Source: Aliihoeflea aestuarii (GTDB lineage Bacteria > Pseudomonadota > Alphaproteobacteria > Rhizobiales > Rhizobiaceae). From it: 64,000 nucleotides of DNA. Positions 13,534-24,143 of the stretch are shown here, one piece after another. Under the pieces are notes generated by a model that saw only the letters and a program-made list of their open reading frames with translations, had not been told where the DNA came from and ran no database searches. The first letter of the stretch is position 1, and each line of letters begins with the position of its first letter. Where the stretch lies: contig NZ_JAAAMK010000003.1 of assembly GCF_024105665.1 (NCBI RefSeq), positions 1-64,000 on the forward strand, written 5' to 3'. The position numbers and the translations under genes are program-made.

Positions 13534-14238
13534 CTATCCTCCGCCGAGATAGGCTTCGACCACAGCCGGATCGGCGGCCATTTCATCGGTGCTGCCCGAT
13601 CGGCGGATTTCGCCGAGTTCCATCAGATGCGCTTCATCGGCGATCTCCAGAGCGGCGCGCGCATTTTGCTCCACCAAGAGGATCGATACTCCGGTCGAGC
13701 GCAGTTCAGCGACGATGCCGAGGATTTCGGCGACGATCTTCGGGGCGAGGCCGAGGCTCGGTTCGTCCAATAGGAGAAGCTTCGGCCGGCTCATCAGTGC
13801 GCGGGCAAGCGCCAGCATCTGCCTTTCGCCGCCCGAAAGCGTTCCGGCAAGCTGTTTGCGTCGTTCCTTCAGGCGTGGAAAGCGATCATAGAGGTCAGCG
13901 CGTGCTTCGGCCCGCTCCGACGCCGACCGCAGGAAGCCGCCCAGCTCCATATTGTCTTCGACGCTCATGGAGCCGAAGAGCTCGCGCTTTTCCGAGACCA
14001 GGCACATGCCGGCGGCGACGCGGCCCTCGACGCTCGGCGGCACCGGCTTTCCGCGATAAAGGATCGTCCCGCTCGACGGCACGACGCCCATAGCGGCATT
14101 GAGCAGCGTCGTCTTGCCGGCACCGTTTGCGCCGATGACGGTGACGATGCGCCCCTCTGCCATGGCAAGGTCGACCCCATGCAGGACTTCGGCCTTGCCG
14201 TAGGAAACGCGGATATCGGAGAGTTGGAGAAGGCTCAC
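13534..14238 (-). CDS. livF: Branched-chain amino acid-type ABC transporter ATP-binding protein (LivF)
   Basis: A 234-aa ABC ATPase. Walker A GANGAGKT is at 36-43, the signature LSGGERQ near 135, Walker B LLLLDEPSLGLAP follows, and the switch His lies after SILLVEQNA. The VEQNA motif in place of a VTHD-type switch is typical of LivF. It pairs with the LivG-type half of the fused upstream protein to drive import. Its ATG overlaps the stop of that gene by 4 nt (14235-14238). Confidence 0.93.
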   Translation of the reverse strand: MSLLQLSDIRVSYGKAEVLHGVDLAMAEGRIVTVIGANGAGKTTLLNAAMGVVPSSGTILYRGKPVPPSVEGRVAAGMCLVSEKRELFGSMSVEDNMELGGFLRSASERAEARADLYDRFPRLKERRKQLAGTLSGGERQMLALARALMSRPKLLLLDEPSLGLAPKIVAEILGIVAELRSTGVSILLVEQNARAALEIADEAHLMELGEIRRSGSTDEMAADPAVVEAYLGGG

Positions 14239-16004
14239 GACACGCCTCCGAGATAGGCCGACACGACGGCGGGATGACGGCGCACCTCGGCCGGGTTGCC
14301 CTCGGCGATCTTGGTGCCGAAGTCGAGGACGACGAGATGATCGACCAGCCCCATGACGAAGCTCATATCGTGTTCGACCAGAAGCACGCCGACACCTTCC
14401 GCGCGCAGCTTCTTCAACAACTCCGCCAGTTCCTGCTTTTCGCCGTGGCGAAGTCCGGCGGCCGGTTCGTCGAGAAGCAGCAGCGCCGGATCGAGGCTGA
14501 GCGCACGGGCGATTTCGAGGATGCGGATCTGGCCGAGGGCCAGATCGCCCGCCGGGCGGTCGCGATAATCGGCCAGCCCGACGCGCGCGATCTGCGTTTC
14601 GGCCTCGGCCAGAAGAATGGCTTCCTCGGCGCGGTCGAGCCGCAGGACGGAGCGAACCACGCCCGAGCGACCGCGCAGATGCGCGCCGAGCGCAACGTTT
14701 TCCAGAACGGTCATCTCCGGCAGCACCTTGGCGTGCTGGAAGGTGCGGGCGATGCCGTGGCGGGCGACCTCGCGTGGGCTTTTCGCCGAAGCGGTCGCGT
14801 CGCCGAAGATCACCTTGCCGCCGCTCAAGGGCGAGATAGCCGTGATCAGGTTGAACGTGGTGCTTTTGCCCGCCCCGTTCGGCCCGATCAGGCCGACGAT
14901 CTGCCCCGCTTTCACATCGAACGAGACGTCGTTGACGGCGACGAGGCCTCCGAATGTTTTGCGCGCGGCTTCGAGCTTGACGAGCGTGGTGCCTTCGGGC
15001 GCGAGTTTGCGGCGGCCGAGCGCGCCGTCGGCCTTGGGCAGCGGTCGTCGCTTTCGGGCCGGCAGCGCGCGCAGGATGAGCGGCCAGAGTCCGTCGCGGC
15101 TGAACTGGAGGATGGCGACCAGCAGAATTCCGAAGACGATCATCTCGAAATTGCCGGTGATGCCGACGAGGTCGGGCAGGAAGCGCTGGAGCAGGTCCTT
15201 CAGGATCAGGACGAGGCTCGCGCCGAAGATCGCACCCCAGACGTGCCCCGCGCCGCCGACGACCGCCATCAGCAGATACTCGATGCCCATATTGAGGCCG
15301 AAGGGCGTCGGGTTCACCGAGCGTTGCATATGCGCGTAGAGCCAGCCGGACAGTGCGGCAAGCACGCCCGCCAGCACGAAGACGGTGAGCTTGGCACGTA
15401 CGATGTCGACGCCGAAGGCCTCGGCTGCCTGCGTGCCGCCGCGCAAGGCGCGCAGCGAGCGCCCGACGCGGGAATCCAGAAGGTTGCGCGCACCGATGGC
15501 GACCGCGATGACGCAGCCCCAGATGACGTAATAGATCGAGCCCGACGAAAAGAAGCGATGGCCGGCAAGTTCCAGCGGCGGGATCGCCGTGATGCCGTCA
15601 TAGCGGCCGAAAAGCTGGATCTGGCCGAAGAGGTAGTAGAGCGCCAGACCCCAGGCGATGGTGCCGAGCGGCAGGAAATGACCGGATAGCCGCACGGTGA
15701 TGAGGCCGAGCGGAAGGGCGACCAGCGCCCCCGCCAGAAGTGAAAGCGGCAGCGTCGCCCAGGGGGAAAACCCGTAAGCCGTCGTCAGGACCGCCGTCGT
15801 ATAGGCGCCGAAACCGACCAGCGCCGCCTGACCGAACGACGTCATGCCGCCGACGCCCGTCAGAAGCACGAGGCCGATCGCCACCAGCGAGGCGAGGCCG
15901 ATATTGTTCAAAAGCGTGATCCAGAATGGCGGGATCGGCAGGAAGGGAACGGCCGCGACGACCGCGATGCCGACAAAGCCGATGAGCCTGCGGTCGAGCG
16001 CCAT
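14235..16004 (-). CDS. Fused ABC permease (LivM) and ATPase (LivG)
   Basis: A 589-aa fusion. Residues 1-320 are a LivM-type permease with about 8-9 membrane helices (LLTGVGGMTSFGQAALVGFGAY is the typical motif). A basic linker (ARKRRPLPKADG, about 320-335) joins it to a LivG-type ATPase from about 345 to 589, with Walker A GPNGAGKST, signature LALGQIRILEIARAL, Walker B LLLLDEPAAGL and VLLVEHDMSFV. LivM-LivG fusions are known in this family, so this is uncommon but not unique. It follows livH by 2 nt and is coupled to livF. Confidence 0.93.
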   Translation of the reverse strand: MALDRRLIGFVGIAVVAAVPFLPIPPFWITLLNNIGLASLVAIGLVLLTGVGGMTSFGQAALVGFGAYTTAVLTTAYGFSPWATLPLSLLAGALVALPLGLITVRLSGHFLPLGTIAWGLALYYLFGQIQLFGRYDGITAIPPLELAGHRFFSSGSIYYVIWGCVIAVAIGARNLLDSRVGRSLRALRGGTQAAEAFGVDIVRAKLTVFVLAGVLAALSGWLYAHMQRSVNPTPFGLNMGIEYLLMAVVGGAGHVWGAIFGASLVLILKDLLQRFLPDLVGITGNFEMIVFGILLVAILQFSRDGLWPLILRALPARKRRPLPKADGALGRRKLAPEGTTLVKLEAARKTFGGLVAVNDVSFDVKAGQIVGLIGPNGAGKSTTFNLITAISPLSGGKVIFGDATASAKSPREVARHGIARTFQHAKVLPEMTVLENVALGAHLRGRSGVVRSVLRLDRAEEAILLAEAETQIARVGLADYRDRPAGDLALGQIRILEIARALSLDPALLLLDEPAAGLRHGEKQELAELLKKLRAEGVGVLLVEHDMSFVMGLVDHLVVLDFGTKIAEGNPAEVRRHPAVVSAYLGGVS

Positions 16005-17208: not shown

Positions 17209-19494
17209 TCAGTCGTAGAGAACGCAGGCCACCTTGTGCCCGTCTTCGAGCTTGCGGATCGGTGGCGGCTCTTTCTTTTCAAAGCCGACATGAATGTTAG
17301 TGCCGCGCGGCTCGATCCGCGCCACCTCGGCAAGCGCCGGGCTGCGGACGGTCAGGATCGACATGACCTCGTCGGCCGCAGCCGCCGCATCGCCCTTCAC
17401 CTCGATCAAGATGTCGAGACCCTCGACCGTGGCCTTGCCGAGATGCGCCGGCGCGTCGCCTTCGATCGTCCGCAAATCGAGCGCCGACTTCACGTCACGC
17501 CCTTCCCAGCCGCAGACGGGCGTCGCCAGCGGGCATCTTGTGTGGAACCGGCAGCCATTCGGCGGCTCGATCGCGCTCGGAATCTCGCCGGCCGCCTCGA
17601 GCGGCGGCTTGACGATATCCGGATCGGGTTCCGGGCTCGCATCGAGCAAAAGCCGCGTATAGGGGTGCAGACGCTTGGAGATGACGTCTTCGGTCGGCCC
17701 CATCTCGACGATCTGGCCGAGATACATGATCGCCGTGCGGTCCGCGACGTAGCGGATCGTCGGCAGGTCATGGCTGACATAGACGAAGGAGATGCCGAGT
17801 TCCTCGCGAAAGCGGCGCATGAGGTTGAGGACGCCCGCGCGGATCGACACGTCGAGCATCGAAACAGGCTCGTCGGCGACGATGAAGCTTGGTTCCAGCA
17901 CGATCGCGCGCGCGATGGCAACGCGCTGGCGCTGGCCGCCAGACAATTCGTGTGGGAACCGCTCCAGATAGGTCTCGGCCGGCTTGAGACCGGCACGCTC
18001 CAGCGCCTGACGCACACGCAGCTTCAAATCCTTGCCTTTGGCGAGACCATGGATCGTCAACGGCTCGCCGACGATATCGGCGATGGTGAAGCGCGGGTTG
18101 AGCGTTTGATACGGGTCCTGAAAGACCATCTGCGCCGAGCGGCGGAACGCCTTCAGATCCTTGCCCTTGAGATGCGCAACATCGCTGCCCGCGAAACGGA
18201 TTTCGCCTTCGGTCGCATCCTGAAGCTTGACCAGCATCTCGCCGGTCGTCGTCTTGCCCGAACCGGATTCACCGGCAAGCCCGAGGATTTCACCAGCCTT
18301 CAATTCGAAATCGATGCCGTCGACGGCATGGACCTTACGGTCTTCCTTCTTCGAAAATGACGACAGGAAGCCGCCGGCGACAGGGAAATGGCGCTTCAGG
18401 CCGCGCACTTCGATGACATTGCCTTCGCCGATGTCGTCGGCGGGCGAATTGATCGCGCTGGCGATTTCGCCAAGCCGCTGGCCGACCTTTGCCCATGTCT
18501 CGTTGCGCGCGGAGATCGCGCGGAATTCCTCGGCCTTTTCGGGAAAATGGCAAGCTGTCGCGTGATCGCCGCCAACATTGTGGAAGGCGGGCGCCTCGGC
18601 GATGCAACGCTCCTGCGCAAACGGGCAGCGCGCGGCGAAGCGGCATCCCGTCGGCGGGTCAAGCAGGTTGGGCGGCGTACCGGGGATCGAGATCAGTTCG
18701 CGCTGCGCCCCTTCCAGCGTCGGGAACGCGTTGGTCAGGCCCATCGTATAGGGGTGGGCGGGCGCGCGGAATACGGTGCGGACCGGGCCGGTCTCGACGA
18801 TCTTGCCGCCATACATGACAGCGACGCGATCACAGGTCTGAACCACGACGGAAATGTCATGCGTGATGAACAGCAGCGACATGCCGCGCTCGCGGCGCAA
18901 CTTGCCGAGGCGCGCGAGAATCTGCGCCTGCGTGACCACGTCGAGCGCGGTCGTCGGCTCGTCGGCGATGACGAGCGCCGGATCGAGCGCCATCGCCATG
19001 GCGATGATGGCGCGCTGCTTCATGCCTCCCGACATTTCATGCGGATAGGCCGACAGGCGCGACGGATCGATGCCGACCGCGCGGAACAGCGTCTCGCCAT
19101 GCGCCCAGGCATCCTTTTTGTCGATCTGGATATGGGCCTGCATGGCCTCCACGATCTGGTCGCCGACACGGTAGACGGGATCGAGCGCGTTCATCGCCGC
19201 CTGGCTGATCCAGGCGATATCCTTCCAGCGAACCTTGCGCATCTCTTCTTCGGAAAGCGGCACGAGGTCCCGACCTGAAAAGCGGATCGAGCCGGCGGCC
19301 ACGTCTCCGTTCGGCGGGAGCAGCCGCAGCATGCCCTTGGCGGCCGTCGTCTTGCCGCAGCCGGATTCGCCGACCAGTCCGAGCGATTCGCCCGGCCGGA
19401 TCGAAAAGTCGATGCCGTCCACCGCCCGCACCGGCCCTGCGCCGGTGCGATAGTGGATGGCGAGGTCTTTCACGTCGAGAAGCGGTTCGGTCAT
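17209..19494 (-). CDS. Fused OppD-OppF-type ABC ATPase with C-terminal extension
   Basis: A 761-aa protein holding both ATPases of a peptide importer. The first half has Walker A GESGCGKT (42-49), signature MSGGMKQRA, Walker B VIADEPTTALD and the OppD C-terminal Fe-S-like Cys cluster (CRFAARCPFAQERC). After a linker, the second half (from about 395) has GESGSGKT, LSGGQRQRVAIARA and FIVADEPVSMLD. In OppF the final Cys motif is compact; here about 75 residues lie between PVCGWEGRD and the closing DGHKVACVLYD. The start ATG (19494) overlaps the permease stop by 4 nt. The open frame upstream of 19494 is antiparallel noise inside the permease gene. Confidence 0.93.
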   Translation of the reverse strand: MTEPLLDVKDLAIHYRTGAGPVRAVDGIDFSIRPGESLGLVGESGCGKTTAAKGMLRLLPPNGDVAAGSIRFSGRDLVPLSEEEMRKVRWKDIAWISQAAMNALDPVYRVGDQIVEAMQAHIQIDKKDAWAHGETLFRAVGIDPSRLSAYPHEMSGGMKQRAIIAMAMALDPALVIADEPTTALDVVTQAQILARLGKLRRERGMSLLFITHDISVVVQTCDRVAVMYGGKIVETGPVRTVFRAPAHPYTMGLTNAFPTLEGAQRELISIPGTPPNLLDPPTGCRFAARCPFAQERCIAEAPAFHNVGGDHATACHFPEKAEEFRAISARNETWAKVGQRLGEIASAINSPADDIGEGNVIEVRGLKRHFPVAGGFLSSFSKKEDRKVHAVDGIDFELKAGEILGLAGESGSGKTTTGEMLVKLQDATEGEIRFAGSDVAHLKGKDLKAFRRSAQMVFQDPYQTLNPRFTIADIVGEPLTIHGLAKGKDLKLRVRQALERAGLKPAETYLERFPHELSGGQRQRVAIARAIVLEPSFIVADEPVSMLDVSIRAGVLNLMRRFREELGISFVYVSHDLPTIRYVADRTAIMYLGQIVEMGPTEDVISKRLHPYTRLLLDASPEPDPDIVKPPLEAAGEIPSAIEPPNGCRFHTRCPLATPVCGWEGRDVKSALDLRTIEGDAPAHLGKATVEGLDILIEVKGDAAAAADEVMSILTVRSPALAEVARIEPRGTNIHVGFEKKEPPPIRKLEDGHKVACVLYD

Positions 19495-21230
19495 TGGCGC
19501 GCCCTCAGTCGCGGATTGGCGATGAGTTCGAGCGACCGCGAGATGAAGAACACGGACAGCACCGTCGTCATGATGAAGAAACCGGGCGGCAGGTTCCACC
19601 ACCAGGCGGTCCGCCACGCGCCCGAAAGACGCGCATTGTGCAGGATGCCGCCCCACGAGATCGATTGCGGCGGCCCGAGTCCGAGGAACGACAATGTTGC
19701 CTCCGCGATGATCGACACGCCGACGATGATGGCGAGTTCGAGGAAGACGAGCGGCATCACGTTCGGAAAGATGTGGAGATACATGATCCGCAGATCGGAC
19801 GCGCCGGCGACCCGCGCGGCCTTCACGAAGGGCCGCTCGCGCAGCGACAGCACCTGACTTCGGATCAGTCGCGCCACCGTCCGCCATGTGAGCAGCGATA
19901 CGGCGAGGATGACGATCAGCAGGCTCGGCTCGAACAGGAGCACCAGGATCAGTGCGAACGGTTCGAACGGAATGCCGTACATCACGTCCACCGTGCGCAT
20001 CAGCACCGTTTCGGTGCGGCCGCGATAATAGCCGGCGACGAGGCCGACATTGGTGCCGATCAGCACGACGAGCGCCGCCCCCAGGAAGCCGACGAGAAGC
20101 GCAATGCGCGAGCCGTGGACGTTCTGGCTGAAGAGGTCGCGGCCCAGATGATCGGTGCCGAACCAATGGTCGGCGCTCGGCGGGGCGAGCCGGTTGACGA
20201 AGCGGTCGGAGCCGAGCGCGAGGATGTCGTCACCGGCGACCAGAAGCGCGCGCAGATGACGTTCGCTCTCGGCCGGCACGCGCAGCCATTCCCCGCCGTC
20301 ATGCTCGATGATGATGCCGTTACGGCCGACCGCAACCGCGCGTCCGTCGTCGCCGACCCAGCCGGCGCGCAGCGCGCGGGTGTCCGGTGTCGTGTCCTCT
20401 GCCCAGCGCTCTCCGGGCGCTGTGCGGCGCACCGCCGTGCCGCGCTCGCCGACCGCGATCGCTTGCCCGTTGGGCGAAATGTGTAGGCCGTTCAATTCGC
20501 GCTGTGTGCCGAGCCGTTCAAGTTCGGCTTCGCCCGTCTGCGGATCATAACGGATCGCAAGGCCGCGATCGCCGACGGCCAGCAGTGTACCGTCCGCATC
20601 GCGCTGCACCGCGTTGAGCGCGAAGCCGCGCCCGACCGGGCTTTCGATCTCCGTGACCGAAGGCGTGCCGGCAAGATCGAGCAGCCAAAGCTCCTCGCCG
20701 CCCCCGACGATCAGTGCGGAATTTTCATCGACCCATGCGGCGGAGCGCAGATGGGCGGAAGCGGGTGCATCGACGGACGTCCATCCGGTGCCGTCGAGAA
20801 GCGCGATCGTGCCGTCCGAACCGACGACCAGCGCGCGGCCGTCCTCAGCTATCGCGACACCGTTCAAATCGACGATTTGCGGGAAGCCGATCACGTCCCA
20901 GCCATCCGGGCCGTACCGATAGACGGTGCCCTGACGGCCGACCGCGATGCCGTTTCCGGCACCGTCGTCGTCGGCTGCCTGAATGGCGTATTCGCCGAGC
21001 GACGGCGACAGGCTCCAGTTGATCGCGCCGCCCTCGCCCGCTTCGCGCACGAGCACGGATGCGTCCTCGACCTCGTTGATGGCATTCGGATCGTGAGGCG
21101 ACAACAGGGGCGCGGCGAGCGCCATGGCGACGATGACGGATAGGACCGCCAGCCCGATGACGGCGAGCCGGTCGGCCAGAACCAGACGAAGCGGCTTGGC
21201 GGCGCTCCTGATAGCGGAAGGCACGATCAT
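19491..21230 (-). CDS. DppC/OppC-type permease with a large beta-propeller-like periplasmic insertion
   Basis: A 579-aa permease, about twice the usual 280-300 aa. Residues 1-50 give the N-terminal tail and first membrane helix, ending SPHDPNAINE. The canonical protein resumes at 349 with PPSADHWFGTDHLGRDLFS and continues with five helices and the EAA loop (FVKAARVAGASD). Between them, about 52-347 form seven repeats of 38-44 residues, each with a VGxxG-like turn: AVGRQG 96, VVGSDG 135, IVGGGE 174, AVGDRG 218, AVGERG 259, AVGRNG 300, ALGSDR 338. This spacing suggests a seven-bladed propeller (Ycf48/WD/BNR-like) facing the periplasm. The frame is intact and both junctions are overlapping (ATGA). 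Confidence 0.92.
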   Translation of the reverse strand: MIVPSAIRSAAKPLRLVLADRLAVIGLAVLSVIVAMALAAPLLSPHDPNAINEVEDASVLVREAGEGGAINWSLSPSLGEYAIQAADDDGAGNGIAVGRQGTVYRYGPDGWDVIGFPQIVDLNGVAIAEDGRALVVGSDGTIALLDGTGWTSVDAPASAHLRSAAWVDENSALIVGGGEELWLLDLAGTPSVTEIESPVGRGFALNAVQRDADGTLLAVGDRGLAIRYDPQTGEAELERLGTQRELNGLHISPNGQAIAVGERGTAVRRTAPGERWAEDTTPDTRALRAGWVGDDGRAVAVGRNGIIIEHDGGEWLRVPAESERHLRALLVAGDDILALGSDRFVNRLAPPSADHWFGTDHLGRDLFSQNVHGSRIALLVGFLGAALVVLIGTNVGLVAGYYRGRTETVLMRTVDVMYGIPFEPFALILVLLFEPSLLIVILAVSLLTWRTVARLIRSQVLSLRERPFVKAARVAGASDLRIMYLHIFPNVMPLVFLELAIIVGVSIIAEATLSFLGLGPPQSISWGGILHNARLSGAWRTAWWWNLPPGFFIMTTVLSVFFISRSLELIANPRLRARQ

Positions 21231-22204
21231 TTGAAGCTCACGCGTGGGTCGAGCGTCGAATAGAGGATATCGACGAGAAGATTGAGGGAGATCACGAAGG
21301 CGGCCATGACGAGGAAGCTCGCCTGCGCCAGCGGGAAGTCGGAGGTGCGCACCGCGCTCAGGATTTCACGGCCAAGACCCGGCCATGAGAACACGACCTC
21401 GACCACGACCTGACCGCCCGCAGCAAGGCCGATCGTGACGGCAAGCTGCGTGACGACGGGCAGGAGCGCGTTGCGCGCGGCGTGGTTGTAGAGAATGCGC
21501 CGCTCGGGCAGGCCCTTGGCGCGCGCCATCTCGATGAAATCCTCGCCATAGACCTCCAGCATCGTGTTGCGCATGATCAAAAGCGGCGAGCCGAGATAGT
21601 AGAGCGCGACGACGATGGCCGGCAGCGTCAGGTGCCACAGGAAGTCGAGCGTCGTGATCTTGTCGAAGAAGCCGGTGCTCGTATAGGGCAGCGTGCGCAT
21701 TCCGCTGGTCGGGGCAAGACCGAGCATCACGCCGAAGACGAGAATGCCGATCATGCCGGTCCAGAACATCGGCGCGGAGCGGAACATCAGCCCGGCGAAG
21801 ATGCCGACCGTGTCGGCGCGGGTGCCGCGACGCCAGGACAGCCACGCGCCGAGCGGCACGCCGATGAGATAGGCGATCAGGATTGCCGTCACCATCAGCA
21901 CCATCGTGTTGCCGAGCCGCTCCCAGATGATGTCGGCGACCGGTGCGCGATAGTGGAAGGAATAGCCGAAATCGCCCTGCACGGCGTTTTGCAGGAAGAG
22001 CAGATATTGCCGCCACAGGGGTTGGTCGAGGCCGAAGCTCTGGCGCACCATTTCACGCTGTTCGGGGCTGAGGCCCTCGGCGACGAGCGCGGTCGTCGGG
22101 TCCGGCAGCCCCCACCGGAACAGGAAGAACAGGAGCGTCGCGATGATGAAGAGCGAGACCAGTGCCTGGAAGGCACGGCGGATCAAATAGCTACGGCGGT
22201 TCAT
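21227..22204 (-). CDS. DppB/OppB-type ABC permease
   Basis: A 325-aa inner-membrane permease of the peptide/nickel importer family with six helices. The N-terminal helix (YLIRRAFQALVSLFIIATLLFF) and SFGLDQPLWRQYLLFL are typical of the B subunit, as is the EAA loop FIEMARAKGLPERRIL. Length is normal, unlike its partner permease. It probably pairs with the insertion-bearing DppC-type subunit, to which it is coupled by an ATGA overlap at 21227-21230. Confidence 0.94.
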   Translation of the reverse strand: MNRRSYLIRRAFQALVSLFIIATLLFFLFRWGLPDPTTALVAEGLSPEQREMVRQSFGLDQPLWRQYLLFLQNAVQGDFGYSFHYRAPVADIIWERLGNTMVLMVTAILIAYLIGVPLGAWLSWRRGTRADTVGIFAGLMFRSAPMFWTGMIGILVFGVMLGLAPTSGMRTLPYTSTGFFDKITTLDFLWHLTLPAIVVALYYLGSPLLIMRNTMLEVYGEDFIEMARAKGLPERRILYNHAARNALLPVVTQLAVTIGLAAGGQVVVEVVFSWPGLGREILSAVRTSDFPLAQASFLVMAAFVISLNLLVDILYSTLDPRVSFK

Positions 22205-22277: not shown

Positions 22278-23891
22278 TTACTTGACGAGGCGGCCTTCAC
22301 CGTCCCACGAATACCCGGCTTCCTCGAGCGCGGCGCGCGCCGCATCCATGTCGTACTCGAACTGCTCGACGAAAGGCGCGCTCCAGAAGGCGTTAACCGG
22401 CGCGATGATCGAGTGTCCGACCTCGCCGCGACCGTCGAGGAGCACATTCACCATGCGCTCGCGATCCATCGCCTGCGTCAGAGCGCGCCGCACCTCGCGG
22501 TCGTCGAACGGCTCGCGCTTGGTGTTGAAGGTCATGTGATAGTATCCGAAATCCGGCACCGTCACGACCGTCAGGTCGTCCTGCTGCTCGGCAAGCGGAA
22601 TCTGCCCGGCTTCCATGCGCCAGGCGGTCATGTCGATCGCGCCGGTCTGAAGACCCGTGAACACGCCTTCCATGTCGGCATAGATCACGAACTCGACACC
22701 ATCGACGGCGATTTCGTCGGCGTGGAAATGATCCTCGTTTTTCGCCAGCGACATGATCTCGCCGCGGCTGTAGGCGTCATACTTGAACGGCCCGGAACCG
22801 ATATTCGGGATCTGGTCCGGCGTCAGTTCGCCGGGGTTCTCGATATCGGCCCACAGATGTTCGGGCAGGATCGAAATCTGCGACAGCGCGATATTCGCGA
22901 AGGACGCGGACGGCTCGGACAGGTTGAAACGAACGGTCAGGTCACCCGTGGCCTCGACATTTTCGAGCGAGTCCAGATAGGCATCGAAATAGGCGTAGCT
23001 CTGGCTCTTGTAGTAATTGAAGGTGAAGGCGACGTCCTCGGCCGTGACCGGCTCGCCGTCATGGAAGGTCAGGCCCTCGCGCAGCGTGACGTCGATCGTC
23101 GTGTCGTCGACGGCTTCGACGGATGCGGCCATCCAGTTGATCGGCTCGACATCCGGCGACAGGCGAATGAGGCGGTCGTAATAAAGGCGCATCCACTTCC
23201 AGCCCCAGACCGAAGTCGAGGCGAGCGGGTTGAGATTGTCCGGCTCCTGCGGGCCGCCGATACGCAAGGTCTGACGATCCGTCAGCGGGCGGGCCTGCAT
23301 CGGACCCCATTCAGAGTAAAGCCCTTCGCCGGCCATCGCCTCCATGCCCTCGAAGGCCGCGTTGTTGTAGGCCACGACCTCGTCGCGGTAGAACAGCACG
23401 ATCACCGGCGCATCGGGAACGTAGAGCTCCTGCATCTGCTGCACGAGTTCCTGTCGTGCCTCCACGTCGAATTCCTGCGACTGGCGCGTGAAGAGTTCGT
23501 CATATTCGGGATTGTGGTAGCCGCCCGGATTGTTGCCGCCCGGCTCGGACTGGCGCGAATCCAGCGTCCCCAGGAAGAACTGCGGATCGAGACGGTCGAC
23601 GCGGCCCGACCAGCCGATGATCGTCGCGTCGAAATCCTGCTGGTCGTAGAAGCGACCGAGAAGGGTCGAGAACTCCGTCGGCTGGACGTTGACCTCGAGC
23701 CCCAGTTCGCGCCATGCCTCGGCGACGATGAAGGCCGCCTCGTAACGGATCGGGTCGTAGGCTTCGGTCGTGGTTGCGATCGTCACCGCGGGAACGCGTT
23801 CCTGAGCATTGCCCGGCGCCGCAAATGCAGCCGTCAGCGCAGTCGAAACAAGCAGACCGAAACCAATCCGTCGCGAACGTGACATCATCAT
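22278..23891 (-). CDS. Peptide-type ABC substrate-binding protein (SBP_5) with circularly permuted order
   Basis: A 537-aa exported protein (signal to NAQ near 30). In the SBP_5 family the mature N-terminus carries a motif like LRIGGPQEPDNLNP, then LREGLTFHDGEPVTAEDVAFTF, then the segment ending AALEEAGYSWDGEGRL, and the chain finishes with a lobe I segment. Here the order is reversed: residues 31-200 (VPAVTIATT, AEAWRELGLEVNVQ, DFDATIIGWSG, GYHNPEYDELF, DAPVIVLFYRDEVVAYN) match the usual C-terminal third, and 205-537 match the usual N-terminal two thirds, ending at GYSWDGEGRLVK. This is a circular permutation. The start at 23891 has GGAGAGGG 5 nt upstream. First gene of the operon. Confidence 0.9.
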   Translation of the reverse strand: MMMSRSRRIGFGLLVSTALTAAFAAPGNAQERVPAVTIATTTEAYDPIRYEAAFIVAEAWRELGLEVNVQPTEFSTLLGRFYDQQDFDATIIGWSGRVDRLDPQFFLGTLDSRQSEPGGNNPGGYHNPEYDELFTRQSQEFDVEARQELVQQMQELYVPDAPVIVLFYRDEVVAYNNAAFEGMEAMAGEGLYSEWGPMQARPLTDRQTLRIGGPQEPDNLNPLASTSVWGWKWMRLYYDRLIRLSPDVEPINWMAASVEAVDDTTIDVTLREGLTFHDGEPVTAEDVAFTFNYYKSQSYAYFDAYLDSLENVEATGDLTVRFNLSEPSASFANIALSQISILPEHLWADIENPGELTPDQIPNIGSGPFKYDAYSRGEIMSLAKNEDHFHADEIAVDGVEFVIYADMEGVFTGLQTGAIDMTAWRMEAGQIPLAEQQDDLTVVTVPDFGYYHMTFNTKREPFDDREVRRALTQAMDRERMVNVLLDGRGEVGHSIIAPVNAFWSAPFVEQFEYDMDAARAALEEAGYSWDGEGRLVK

Positions 23892-24143
23892 ATAGACCCT
23901 CTCCATTGGTCGTCAGGTGTTCTTGATATTCGAGGCGTCGTGCGCCTCTTTTTAGAGATTATCCCCAGGAGCCGGACGCTAGAAGAATTGGCCCTACATG
24001 ACAACCTTACCACAGGTTGCATTTGGTGATCGCCCATAGACGCAACGTAATCTGCCTGCACCAGCGGGTTCGTTAGCGTGTGCTTTGCCGGACGGCGACG
24101 ACGATGCTAGGCACCTCGCAGATCACTAACGGGAAGGACGCAC

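What the first reader, a model, noticed from the sequence alone, without database searches (positions are those of the whole stretch)
20190..21077. Seven-repeat propeller-like domain inserted in the first periplasmic loop of a peptide permease
The DppC-type permease is 579 aa, against about 290 for the family. The standard ends are intact: the N-terminal helix ends SPHDPNAINE and the protein resumes at PPSADHWFGTDHLGRD. Between them, residues about 52-347 hold seven VGxxG-type turns at 96, 135, 174, 218, 259, 300 and 338, spacings 38-44. That regularity and the count of seven fit a closed beta-propeller. It faces the periplasm, where the binding protein docks. The frame is open and both gene junctions keep 4-nt overlaps, so it is likely made. 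It could bind peptides or cell-wall fragments, or help dock the permuted binding protein encoded in the same operon.
Basis: partly seen in the sequence, partly recalled or inferred. Interest (0 to 1): 0.88.

Follow-up and report, generated by a model that had tools for sequence, protein, structure and literature searches.

The report
Beta-propeller built into a peptide importer
A few alphaproteobacteria carry a peptide-type uptake pump with a seven-bladed propeller domain built into its outer loop, perhaps an extra handle for the protein that delivers the pump's cargo.

Summary
The 579-aa DppC-type permease carries about 286 extra residues (61-346) in its TM1-TM2 periplasmic loop. AlphaFold2 folds residues 58-342 with high confidence as a seven-bladed propeller; Foldseek's best matches are WD40-type propellers. 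It is no artefact: 22 loci of other alphaproteobacteria and one plasmid carry it at the same place, with DppB beside it and, in the 19 loci that reach far enough, the same circularly permuted binding protein. Searched with the permease core instead, 4 of 4 near-identical cores in 297 genomes of the family have the insert; the next best (56% identity or less) do not. Other systems with permuted binding proteins have normal-sized permeases, so the insert looks like one later gain. The face where both linkers leave is conserved, with nine conserved basic loop residues; the other face is more variable and has none. Best explanation: an extra docking surface for the soluble binding protein, working like MalF-P2 with an unrelated fold. 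Docking is inferred, not shown, and the propeller's orientation is unknown. The substrate is open; 7 of 12 testable loci have a gamma-glutamyltranspeptidase gene next door.

The parts
19491..21230 (-). DppC-type permease with inserted propeller, 579 aa
   Evidence: ORF; PF00528 at residues 395-576 and OppC_N PF12911 at 19-52
21051..21101 (-). ancestral TM1-TM2 loop upstream of the insert and first linker (residues 44-60)
   Evidence: compared by eye with insert-less relatives
20193..21050 (-). inserted seven-bladed beta-propeller (about residues 61-346): six four-stranded blades plus one made of the first two and last two strands
   Evidence: AlphaFold2 pLDDT and DSSP; Foldseek
20622..20642 (-). 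SPVGRGF motif (residues 197-203), conserved d-a loop on the linker-side face
   Evidence: conservation in 23 inserts
20247..20270 (-). ESERHLRA motif (residues 321-328), conserved Arg/His loop on the same face
   Evidence: conservation in 23 inserts
19494..20189 (-). permease core (residues 348-579), 93-98% identical to the insert-bearing homologues compared, 90% in Nitratireductor
21227..22204 (-). DppB-type permease, 325 aa, with the normal N-terminal domain
   Evidence: PF19300 and PF00528
22278..23906 (-). circularly permuted SBP_bac_5 binding protein, 542 aa, signal-peptide-like N-terminus without Cys
   Evidence: residues 214-539 align to AppA 24-352 and residues 47-180 to AppA 366-495; N-terminus
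17209..19494 (-). DppD-DppF fused ATPase, 761 aa
24144..25529 (+). divergent M20 peptidase gene, also beside the operon in Aquamicrobium aerolatum (L018)
   Evidence: PF01546

Best explanation
A type I peptide-family ABC importer in which the DppC subunit gained, apparently once, a seven-bladed propeller in its TM1-TM2 periplasmic loop. Shown by computation: the predicted fold, the place, one group of bearers, long co-inheritance with the permuted binding protein, DppB and fused DppDF, and a conserved Arg-rich face on the side where the two linkers leave. Inferred: that this face lies toward the membrane next to the mouth of the pore, and acts as an extra docking surface for the soluble permuted binding protein. 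It would lengthen the stay of that protein on the pump and help choose the right partner, as MalF-P2 is thought to do for MalE, while DppB would still handle release through its scoop motif as in E. coli.
For: Propeller predicted at high confidence with propeller matches in the PDB. DppB beside it in 22 of 22; the permuted binding protein in 19 of 19 whose contig reaches that far. Query not containing the insert: in 297 family genomes the 4 cores at 97-100% identity all lie in insert-length frames (585-627 aa), the other 8 listed matches (46-56%) in frames of 293-331 aa; in plasmids the only core match above 60% is the insert-bearing Nitratireductor one. Insert-bearing cores form one side of a branch, support 98/100. 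Fourfold-site divergence is similar in insert and core (0.58 and 0.56 to L021) while amino-acid identity is 0.60 and 0.94: co-inherited, both constrained. Top loops (b-c, d-a) conserved at 35 of 76 positions, bottom loops at 11 of 58, Fisher p 0.0016; conserved basic residues 9 of 76 and 0 of 58, p 0.005. Both ends of the insert leave at the b-c gap of blade 7, on that face (DSSP, propeller topology recalled). Window binding protein and 19 homologues read from their open frames show no lipobox at the cleavage site. In E. coli, DppA caps DppB/DppC, and DppA and DppBCDF purified apart do not co-elute (PMC12136057, section 8). Precedents: MalF-P2 contacts MalE (PMC3150292, passages); Ycf48, a seven-bladed propeller, binds lumenal parts of D1 through an Arg patch (PMC10403576, passages).
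Against: No complex was modelled, and the permease part of the model is below pLDDT 50, so the orientation is unknown. Permuted binding proteins without a lipobox in Maritalea, Roseomonas and Ketogulonicigenium (N-termini) go with normal DppC, so docking does not need a propeller. The insert as a whole is acidic (24 R+K, 47 D+E in the window). The binding-protein model was poor (pLDDT 52). The 22 loci were found with the insert as query, so their keeping it is no test; searches are, but small. Conserved positions are not independent: most of the 23 rows come from one Rhodobacteraceae group. The face test was made after seeing the pattern.
Confidence: 0.5

Rival explanations
1. The propeller is a ligand-binding or catalytic domain: its Arg-rich face captures or trims an anionic substrate (gamma-glutamyl peptide, cell-wall fragment) at the pore mouth, as a second binding site.
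For: Arg/His/Glu-rich conserved face; gamma-glutamyltranspeptidase gene next to the operon in 7 of 12 loci with at least 2.5 kb downstream; M20 peptidase gene beside it in the window and L018; an S. aureus glutathione importer locus also carries ggt (PMC10355420, abstract).
Against: No enzyme family matched the window insert over a curated cut-off. Conserved residues lie on many blades, not in one pocket. The 7 GGT loci carry Rhodobacteraceae or Pararhodobacter labels or group with them, and the window has no GGT beside the operon, though 4 elsewhere in the genome.
Confidence: 0.22
2. The propeller docks another periplasmic protein (a peptidase, GGT, an assembly factor) or shields the permease, making an envelope complex rather than serving the binding protein.
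For: Propellers are common interaction platforms (recalled); Ycf48 works this way on D1.
Against: Among the neighbours scanned (20 proteins of 9 loci, five queries) none is as constant as the binding protein, DppB and DppDF. A partner encoded elsewhere would not have been seen.
Confidence: 0.18
3. The insert is a tolerated domain with little effect on transport.
For: It evolves faster than the permease core (amino-acid identity 0.51-0.73 against 0.90-0.97 in seven comparisons).
Against: One conserved face and conserved linkers in 23 inserts; no insert-less core above 56% identity was seen in 297 family genomes or above 60% in the plasmids.
Confidence: 0.08
4. Assembly or annotation artefact (two genes fused).
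For: None found.
Against: Same junctions in other genomes and MAGs and in an annotated plasmid.
Confidence: 0.01

Closest known systems
E. coli DppABCDF dipeptide importer (type I ABC importer; PMC12136057, passages and section 8)
   Same: Binding protein of family 5, B and C permeases, D and F ATPases; OppC_N and BPD_transp_1 in the C permease
   Different: No propeller in the description of DppC seen here; binding protein not permuted; DppA Arg383, which meets the dipeptide carboxyl group, aligns by my reading to Glu48 here (Glu in 18 of 19, Gln in 1)
Maltose importer MalFGK2, MalF-P2 region
   Same: Large folded region (residues 91-271) in a periplasmic loop of one permease subunit, touching the binding protein (passages)
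   Different: Other permease family and other loop, not a propeller (recalled)
Ycf48 / PF14870 propellers
   Same: Seven blades and an Arg patch that binds a membrane protein's lumenal surface (passages); profile match of the inserts to nine proteins, six of which were scanned and match PF14870, E 9e-20 (the nine had been picked with the inserts' own profile)
   Different: Not part of a permease; only 6 of 23 inserts match PF14870 at E 0.01, the window's does not
Insert-less relatives: permuted-binding-protein importers (e.g. Halalkalicoccus jeotgali plasmid 2) and unnamed family genome G033
   Same: Permease core 53% (Halalkalicoccus) and 56% (G033); Halalkalicoccus binding protein 36% over 98% in one piece, so same order of halves
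   Different: DppC of normal size, 288-325 aa in eight read, open frame 317 in G033; binding protein of G033 not examined

Membership tests
Peptide/nickel (Opp/Dpp) type I ABC importer | OppC_N and BPD_transp_1 over cut-off in the C permease | tested here: met
   37.6 bits (cut-off 23.9) and 74 bits (cut-off 26.4)
Peptide/nickel (Opp/Dpp) type I ABC importer | family 5 binding protein, B permease and two ATPase halves in one gene run | tested here: met
A named DppC, OppC, GsiD or NikC | NCBIfam equivalog match over cut-off | tested here: not met
   best is Opp4C, 242.5 bits, cut-off 350; filed at superfamily level only
Seven-bladed beta-propeller fold | seven four-stranded blades in a closed ring | tested here: met
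   predicted, not solved
Ycf48 family (PF14870) | match over Pfam gathering score | tested here: not met
   no PF14870 hit for the window insert at E 1; 6 of 23 inserts at E 0.01, best 6.1e-6
WD40 repeat family (PF00400) | match over Pfam gathering score | tested here: not met
   18.9 bits, cut-off 27
MalF-P2-like docking domain (works like, not membership) | contacts the cognate binding protein | not testable with these tools
   no complex prediction offered
Circularly permuted family 5 binding protein | C-terminal part precedes N-terminal part in one ORF | tested here: met
   against 1xoc; the N-terminal part alone matches the late part (after about residue 340) of most full-length chains listed. 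The structure model was too poor to add to this.

The most novel reading that the evidence does not exclude
The propeller is a dedicated receptor for the binding protein: a new way for a type I ABC importer to hold a soluble binding protein at the pump, reached independently of MalF-P2 and of lipid anchoring. Its fast-varying surface would co-evolve with its own permuted partner, while its conserved Arg-rich face seats on the pore.
Probability: 0.4. Interest if true: 0.75.

Novelty: new variant of a known kind. Interest (0 to 1): 0.62.

Why it matters
How binding proteins find and choose their importer is known from a few model pumps (recalled). A natural domain insertion beside a very conserved permease core, with a constant partner binding protein and insert-less relatives, makes a clean experiment: remove the domain and measure docking. 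I found no earlier description of a propeller inside an ABC importer permease, which cover open-licence PMC papers only.

Tried and rejected
Chance repeat: rejected. Frame or assembly artefact: rejected. Single-protein scans for relatives confirmed none (viral contigs, genome contigs); the four-row alignment found 22. Weak hits at E 0.001: 8 of the 12 family genomes that matched, 10 of 11 in the order, and at E 1e-8 9 of 10 in the class. I read 12 such proteins and scanned nine with Pfam: seven matched PF14870 over its cut-off, L052 fell just under (25.1 against 27 bits), L005 matched nothing; L054, L055 and L059 were not scanned and the remaining weak hits were not followed. These genome searches scored only a few first-look candidates per genome (8, 5, 6, 8, 9 at most), so misses are possible; searches scored nearly all. 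The idea that the insert exists because the binding protein is permuted: weakened by insert-less permuted systems. Substrate: GGT neighbours (7 of 12) and Glu48 in place of DppA Arg383 do not suffice to name one. The second structure job (binding protein) gave pLDDT 52 and was not used. The tree (22 with, 9 without insert) carries long-branch warnings; only the unity of the insert group is used. GC of insert 0.69, core 0.65: no use made of it.

Full report
Observation. The 579-aa ORF at 19491-21230 (-) is real. Its ends are a DppC-type permease: OppC_N at 19-52 and BPD_transp_1 at 395-576, both over cut-off. It has 4-nt overlaps with both neighbours.

Fold. A 21-row alignment of the window protein and 20 full-length homologues gave an AlphaFold2 model with block pLDDT 87-96 over residues 61-340; nearly all of the permease part after residue 344 is below 50 and says nothing. 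DSSP gives six blades of four strands; strands 58-64 and 70-75 complete the blade begun by strands 326-332 and 335-340, so the ring is closed by its own two ends. Foldseek against the PDB gave 1557 matches at E 0.001 or better. The first is a Plasmodium ribosome chain (named RACK1 in the entry title), the second the designed seven-bladed 7bif with TM-score 0.80 by its own length; Ycf48 5ojr has 0.66. By sequence the insert is only weakly tied to known propeller families. A profile comparison with nine proteins, six of them scanned and matching PF14870, gave E 9e-20, but these nine had been picked with the inserts' own profile.

Distribution. In 297 genomes of the window's family 4 hold the full insert, the window's own included; 1 of 5 in its genus; 3 of 60 relatives of G098, all in one genus with 8 sampled. 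Samples of 397 genomes of the order, 385 of the class and 299 of the phylum gave no full-length match besides the own genome (few candidates scored per genome). The genome-contig scan found 22 loci: Mesorhizobium microcysteis, Aquamicrobium aerolatum, many Rhodobacteraceae including Rhodobaculum, Rhabdonatronobacter and Pararhodobacter, and MAGs labelled Geminicoccaceae and Hyphomicrobiales. That scan needed one of two peptide patterns, so diverged members may be missed. One plasmid of 72,556 records has it, Nitratireductor sp. OM-1. That several of these genera live in soda lakes is recalled, not from a call.

Test without the insert as query. With the permease core alone, 12 places in 10 of 297 family genomes passed E 1e-65: four at 97-100% identity, all in insert-length frames, and eight at 46-56% in frames of 293-331 aa, one of these a paralogue in the window's own genome. 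In plasmids one record has a core at 90%, the insert-bearing Nitratireductor; all 3241 others are below 60%.

Operon. DppB lies beside it in 22 of 22 loci and the permuted binding protein in 19 of 19 with room, L027 cut by the contig end; DppDF, in part cut by contig ends, follows in 18, the other four ending at the contig edge or, in L019, broken. The binding protein is circularly permuted: residues 214-539 match AppA 24-352, and 47-180 match AppA 366-495. Read back to their open frames, the window protein and 19 homologues (18 of the 22 loci, and Nitratireductor) show no lipobox at the expected cleavage site; L016 and Nitratireductor have a Cys within the hydrophobic stretch.

History. Permuted binding proteins are wider than the insert: 66 plasmid records hold a place covering at least 80% of the query. 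I fetched ten of them besides Nitratireductor: eight have DppC of 288-325 aa; the Microvirga stretch has no annotation, and the Neorhizobium one shows a 531-aa permease entry that I did not resolve. The loop in Halalkalicoccus reads DPNAINRAADGSALRLMEPS, against DPNAINEVEDASVL, propeller, RLAPPS here, which sets the junctions at about 60/61 and 346/347. The 22 insert-bearing cores fall on one side of a branch with support 98/100. In seven comparisons core identity to the window is 90-97% and insert identity 51-73%, with similar fourfold-site divergence: old, co-inherited, both constrained, the core very strongly.

Conserved face. Over 23 inserts, loops b-c and d-a have 35 of 76 positions conserved in at least 22 rows, loops a-b and c-d 11 of 58 (p 0.0016). 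Conserved basic residues in loops: 9 of 76 (R99, R201, R222, R244, R263, R285, R303, R324, H325) against 0 of 58 (p 0.005). In propellers b-c and d-a loops form one face (recalled). Both chain ends leave in the b-c gap of blade 7, on this face, after linkers of about 14 residues (helix ends from the low-confidence part of the model). So the conserved face most likely looks to the permease.

Mechanism. In E. coli DppA caps DppB and DppC, and the two purified apart do not co-elute; DppB's scoop motif works in import after release. MalF-P2 shows that a big loop region can touch a binding protein. The simplest reading is that the propeller adds a docking surface for a soluble binding protein (0.5). 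A second substrate site or a platform for another protein remain open.

Substrate. GGT genes lie next to the operon in 7 of 12 loci with at least 2.5 kb downstream (yes: L015, L020, L021, L022, L023, L024, L026; no: L013, L016, L018, L032, L034; in L024 the match is in two pieces). L016 has a penicillin amidase instead. An S. aureus glutathione importer locus also holds ggt (abstract). The DppA residue that meets the dipeptide carboxyl group (Arg383) aligns to Glu48, and Asp436 to Asp104, by my reading of the alignment ends and of one printed alignment; Glu48 is Glu in 18 of 19 and Asp104 Asp in 19 of 19. So a plain dipeptide is not the obvious cargo; gamma-glutamyl or other modified peptides are a guess.

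Literature. Searches on propellers in permeases or importers gave no paper on this architecture. Searches on permuted binding proteins gave three papers and none; one of the three, PMC4990184 on Treponema Tp0684 (listing only), concerns a glucose-binding protein of divergent topology and is a precedent in another family. All cover open-licence PMC papers only.

Noticed in passing
window 22278-23906: Circularly permuted SBP_bac_5 proteins form a wide group reaching haloarchaea; 66 plasmid records hold a place covering at least 80% of this query. Two paper searches listed no paper on a family 5 case; PMC4990184 (listing only) is a precedent in a glucose-binding protein.
   Followed up: partly
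window 14235-16004: A branched-chain amino acid type transporter downstream has permease and ATPase (LivM-LivG-like, read from the translation) in one 589-aa ORF.
   Followed up: no
L052:871-3021: 717-aa open frame from an unnamed class-level genome with a VGxxG-repeat, propeller-like middle between what look like two membrane helices: perhaps another membrane protein carrying a propeller.
   Followed up: partly
L019:1266-2324: In this MAG contig the dppC frame ends just after the propeller and no permease core follows; misassembly or real break not decided.
   Followed up: partly
L024:13909-15698: The neighbouring gamma-glutamyltranspeptidase gene matches in two overlapping pieces, so broken or misread.
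   Followed up: no
window 19494-20189: The DppC core (without TM1) is more conserved to four Rhodobacteraceae loci (0.93-0.94) than whole DppB of the same operon (0.80-0.82) at similar fourfold-site divergence. An exception is L014, whose partial DppB is 93% over 117 residues. Reason unknown.
   Followed up: partly
L051, L069, L071, L072 (flanks of insert-less permuted systems): M20 or M28 peptidases, and in L051, L071 and L072 hydantoinase/oxoprolinase genes, lie near these operons, a possible hint to the cargo of the wider group.
   Followed up: no
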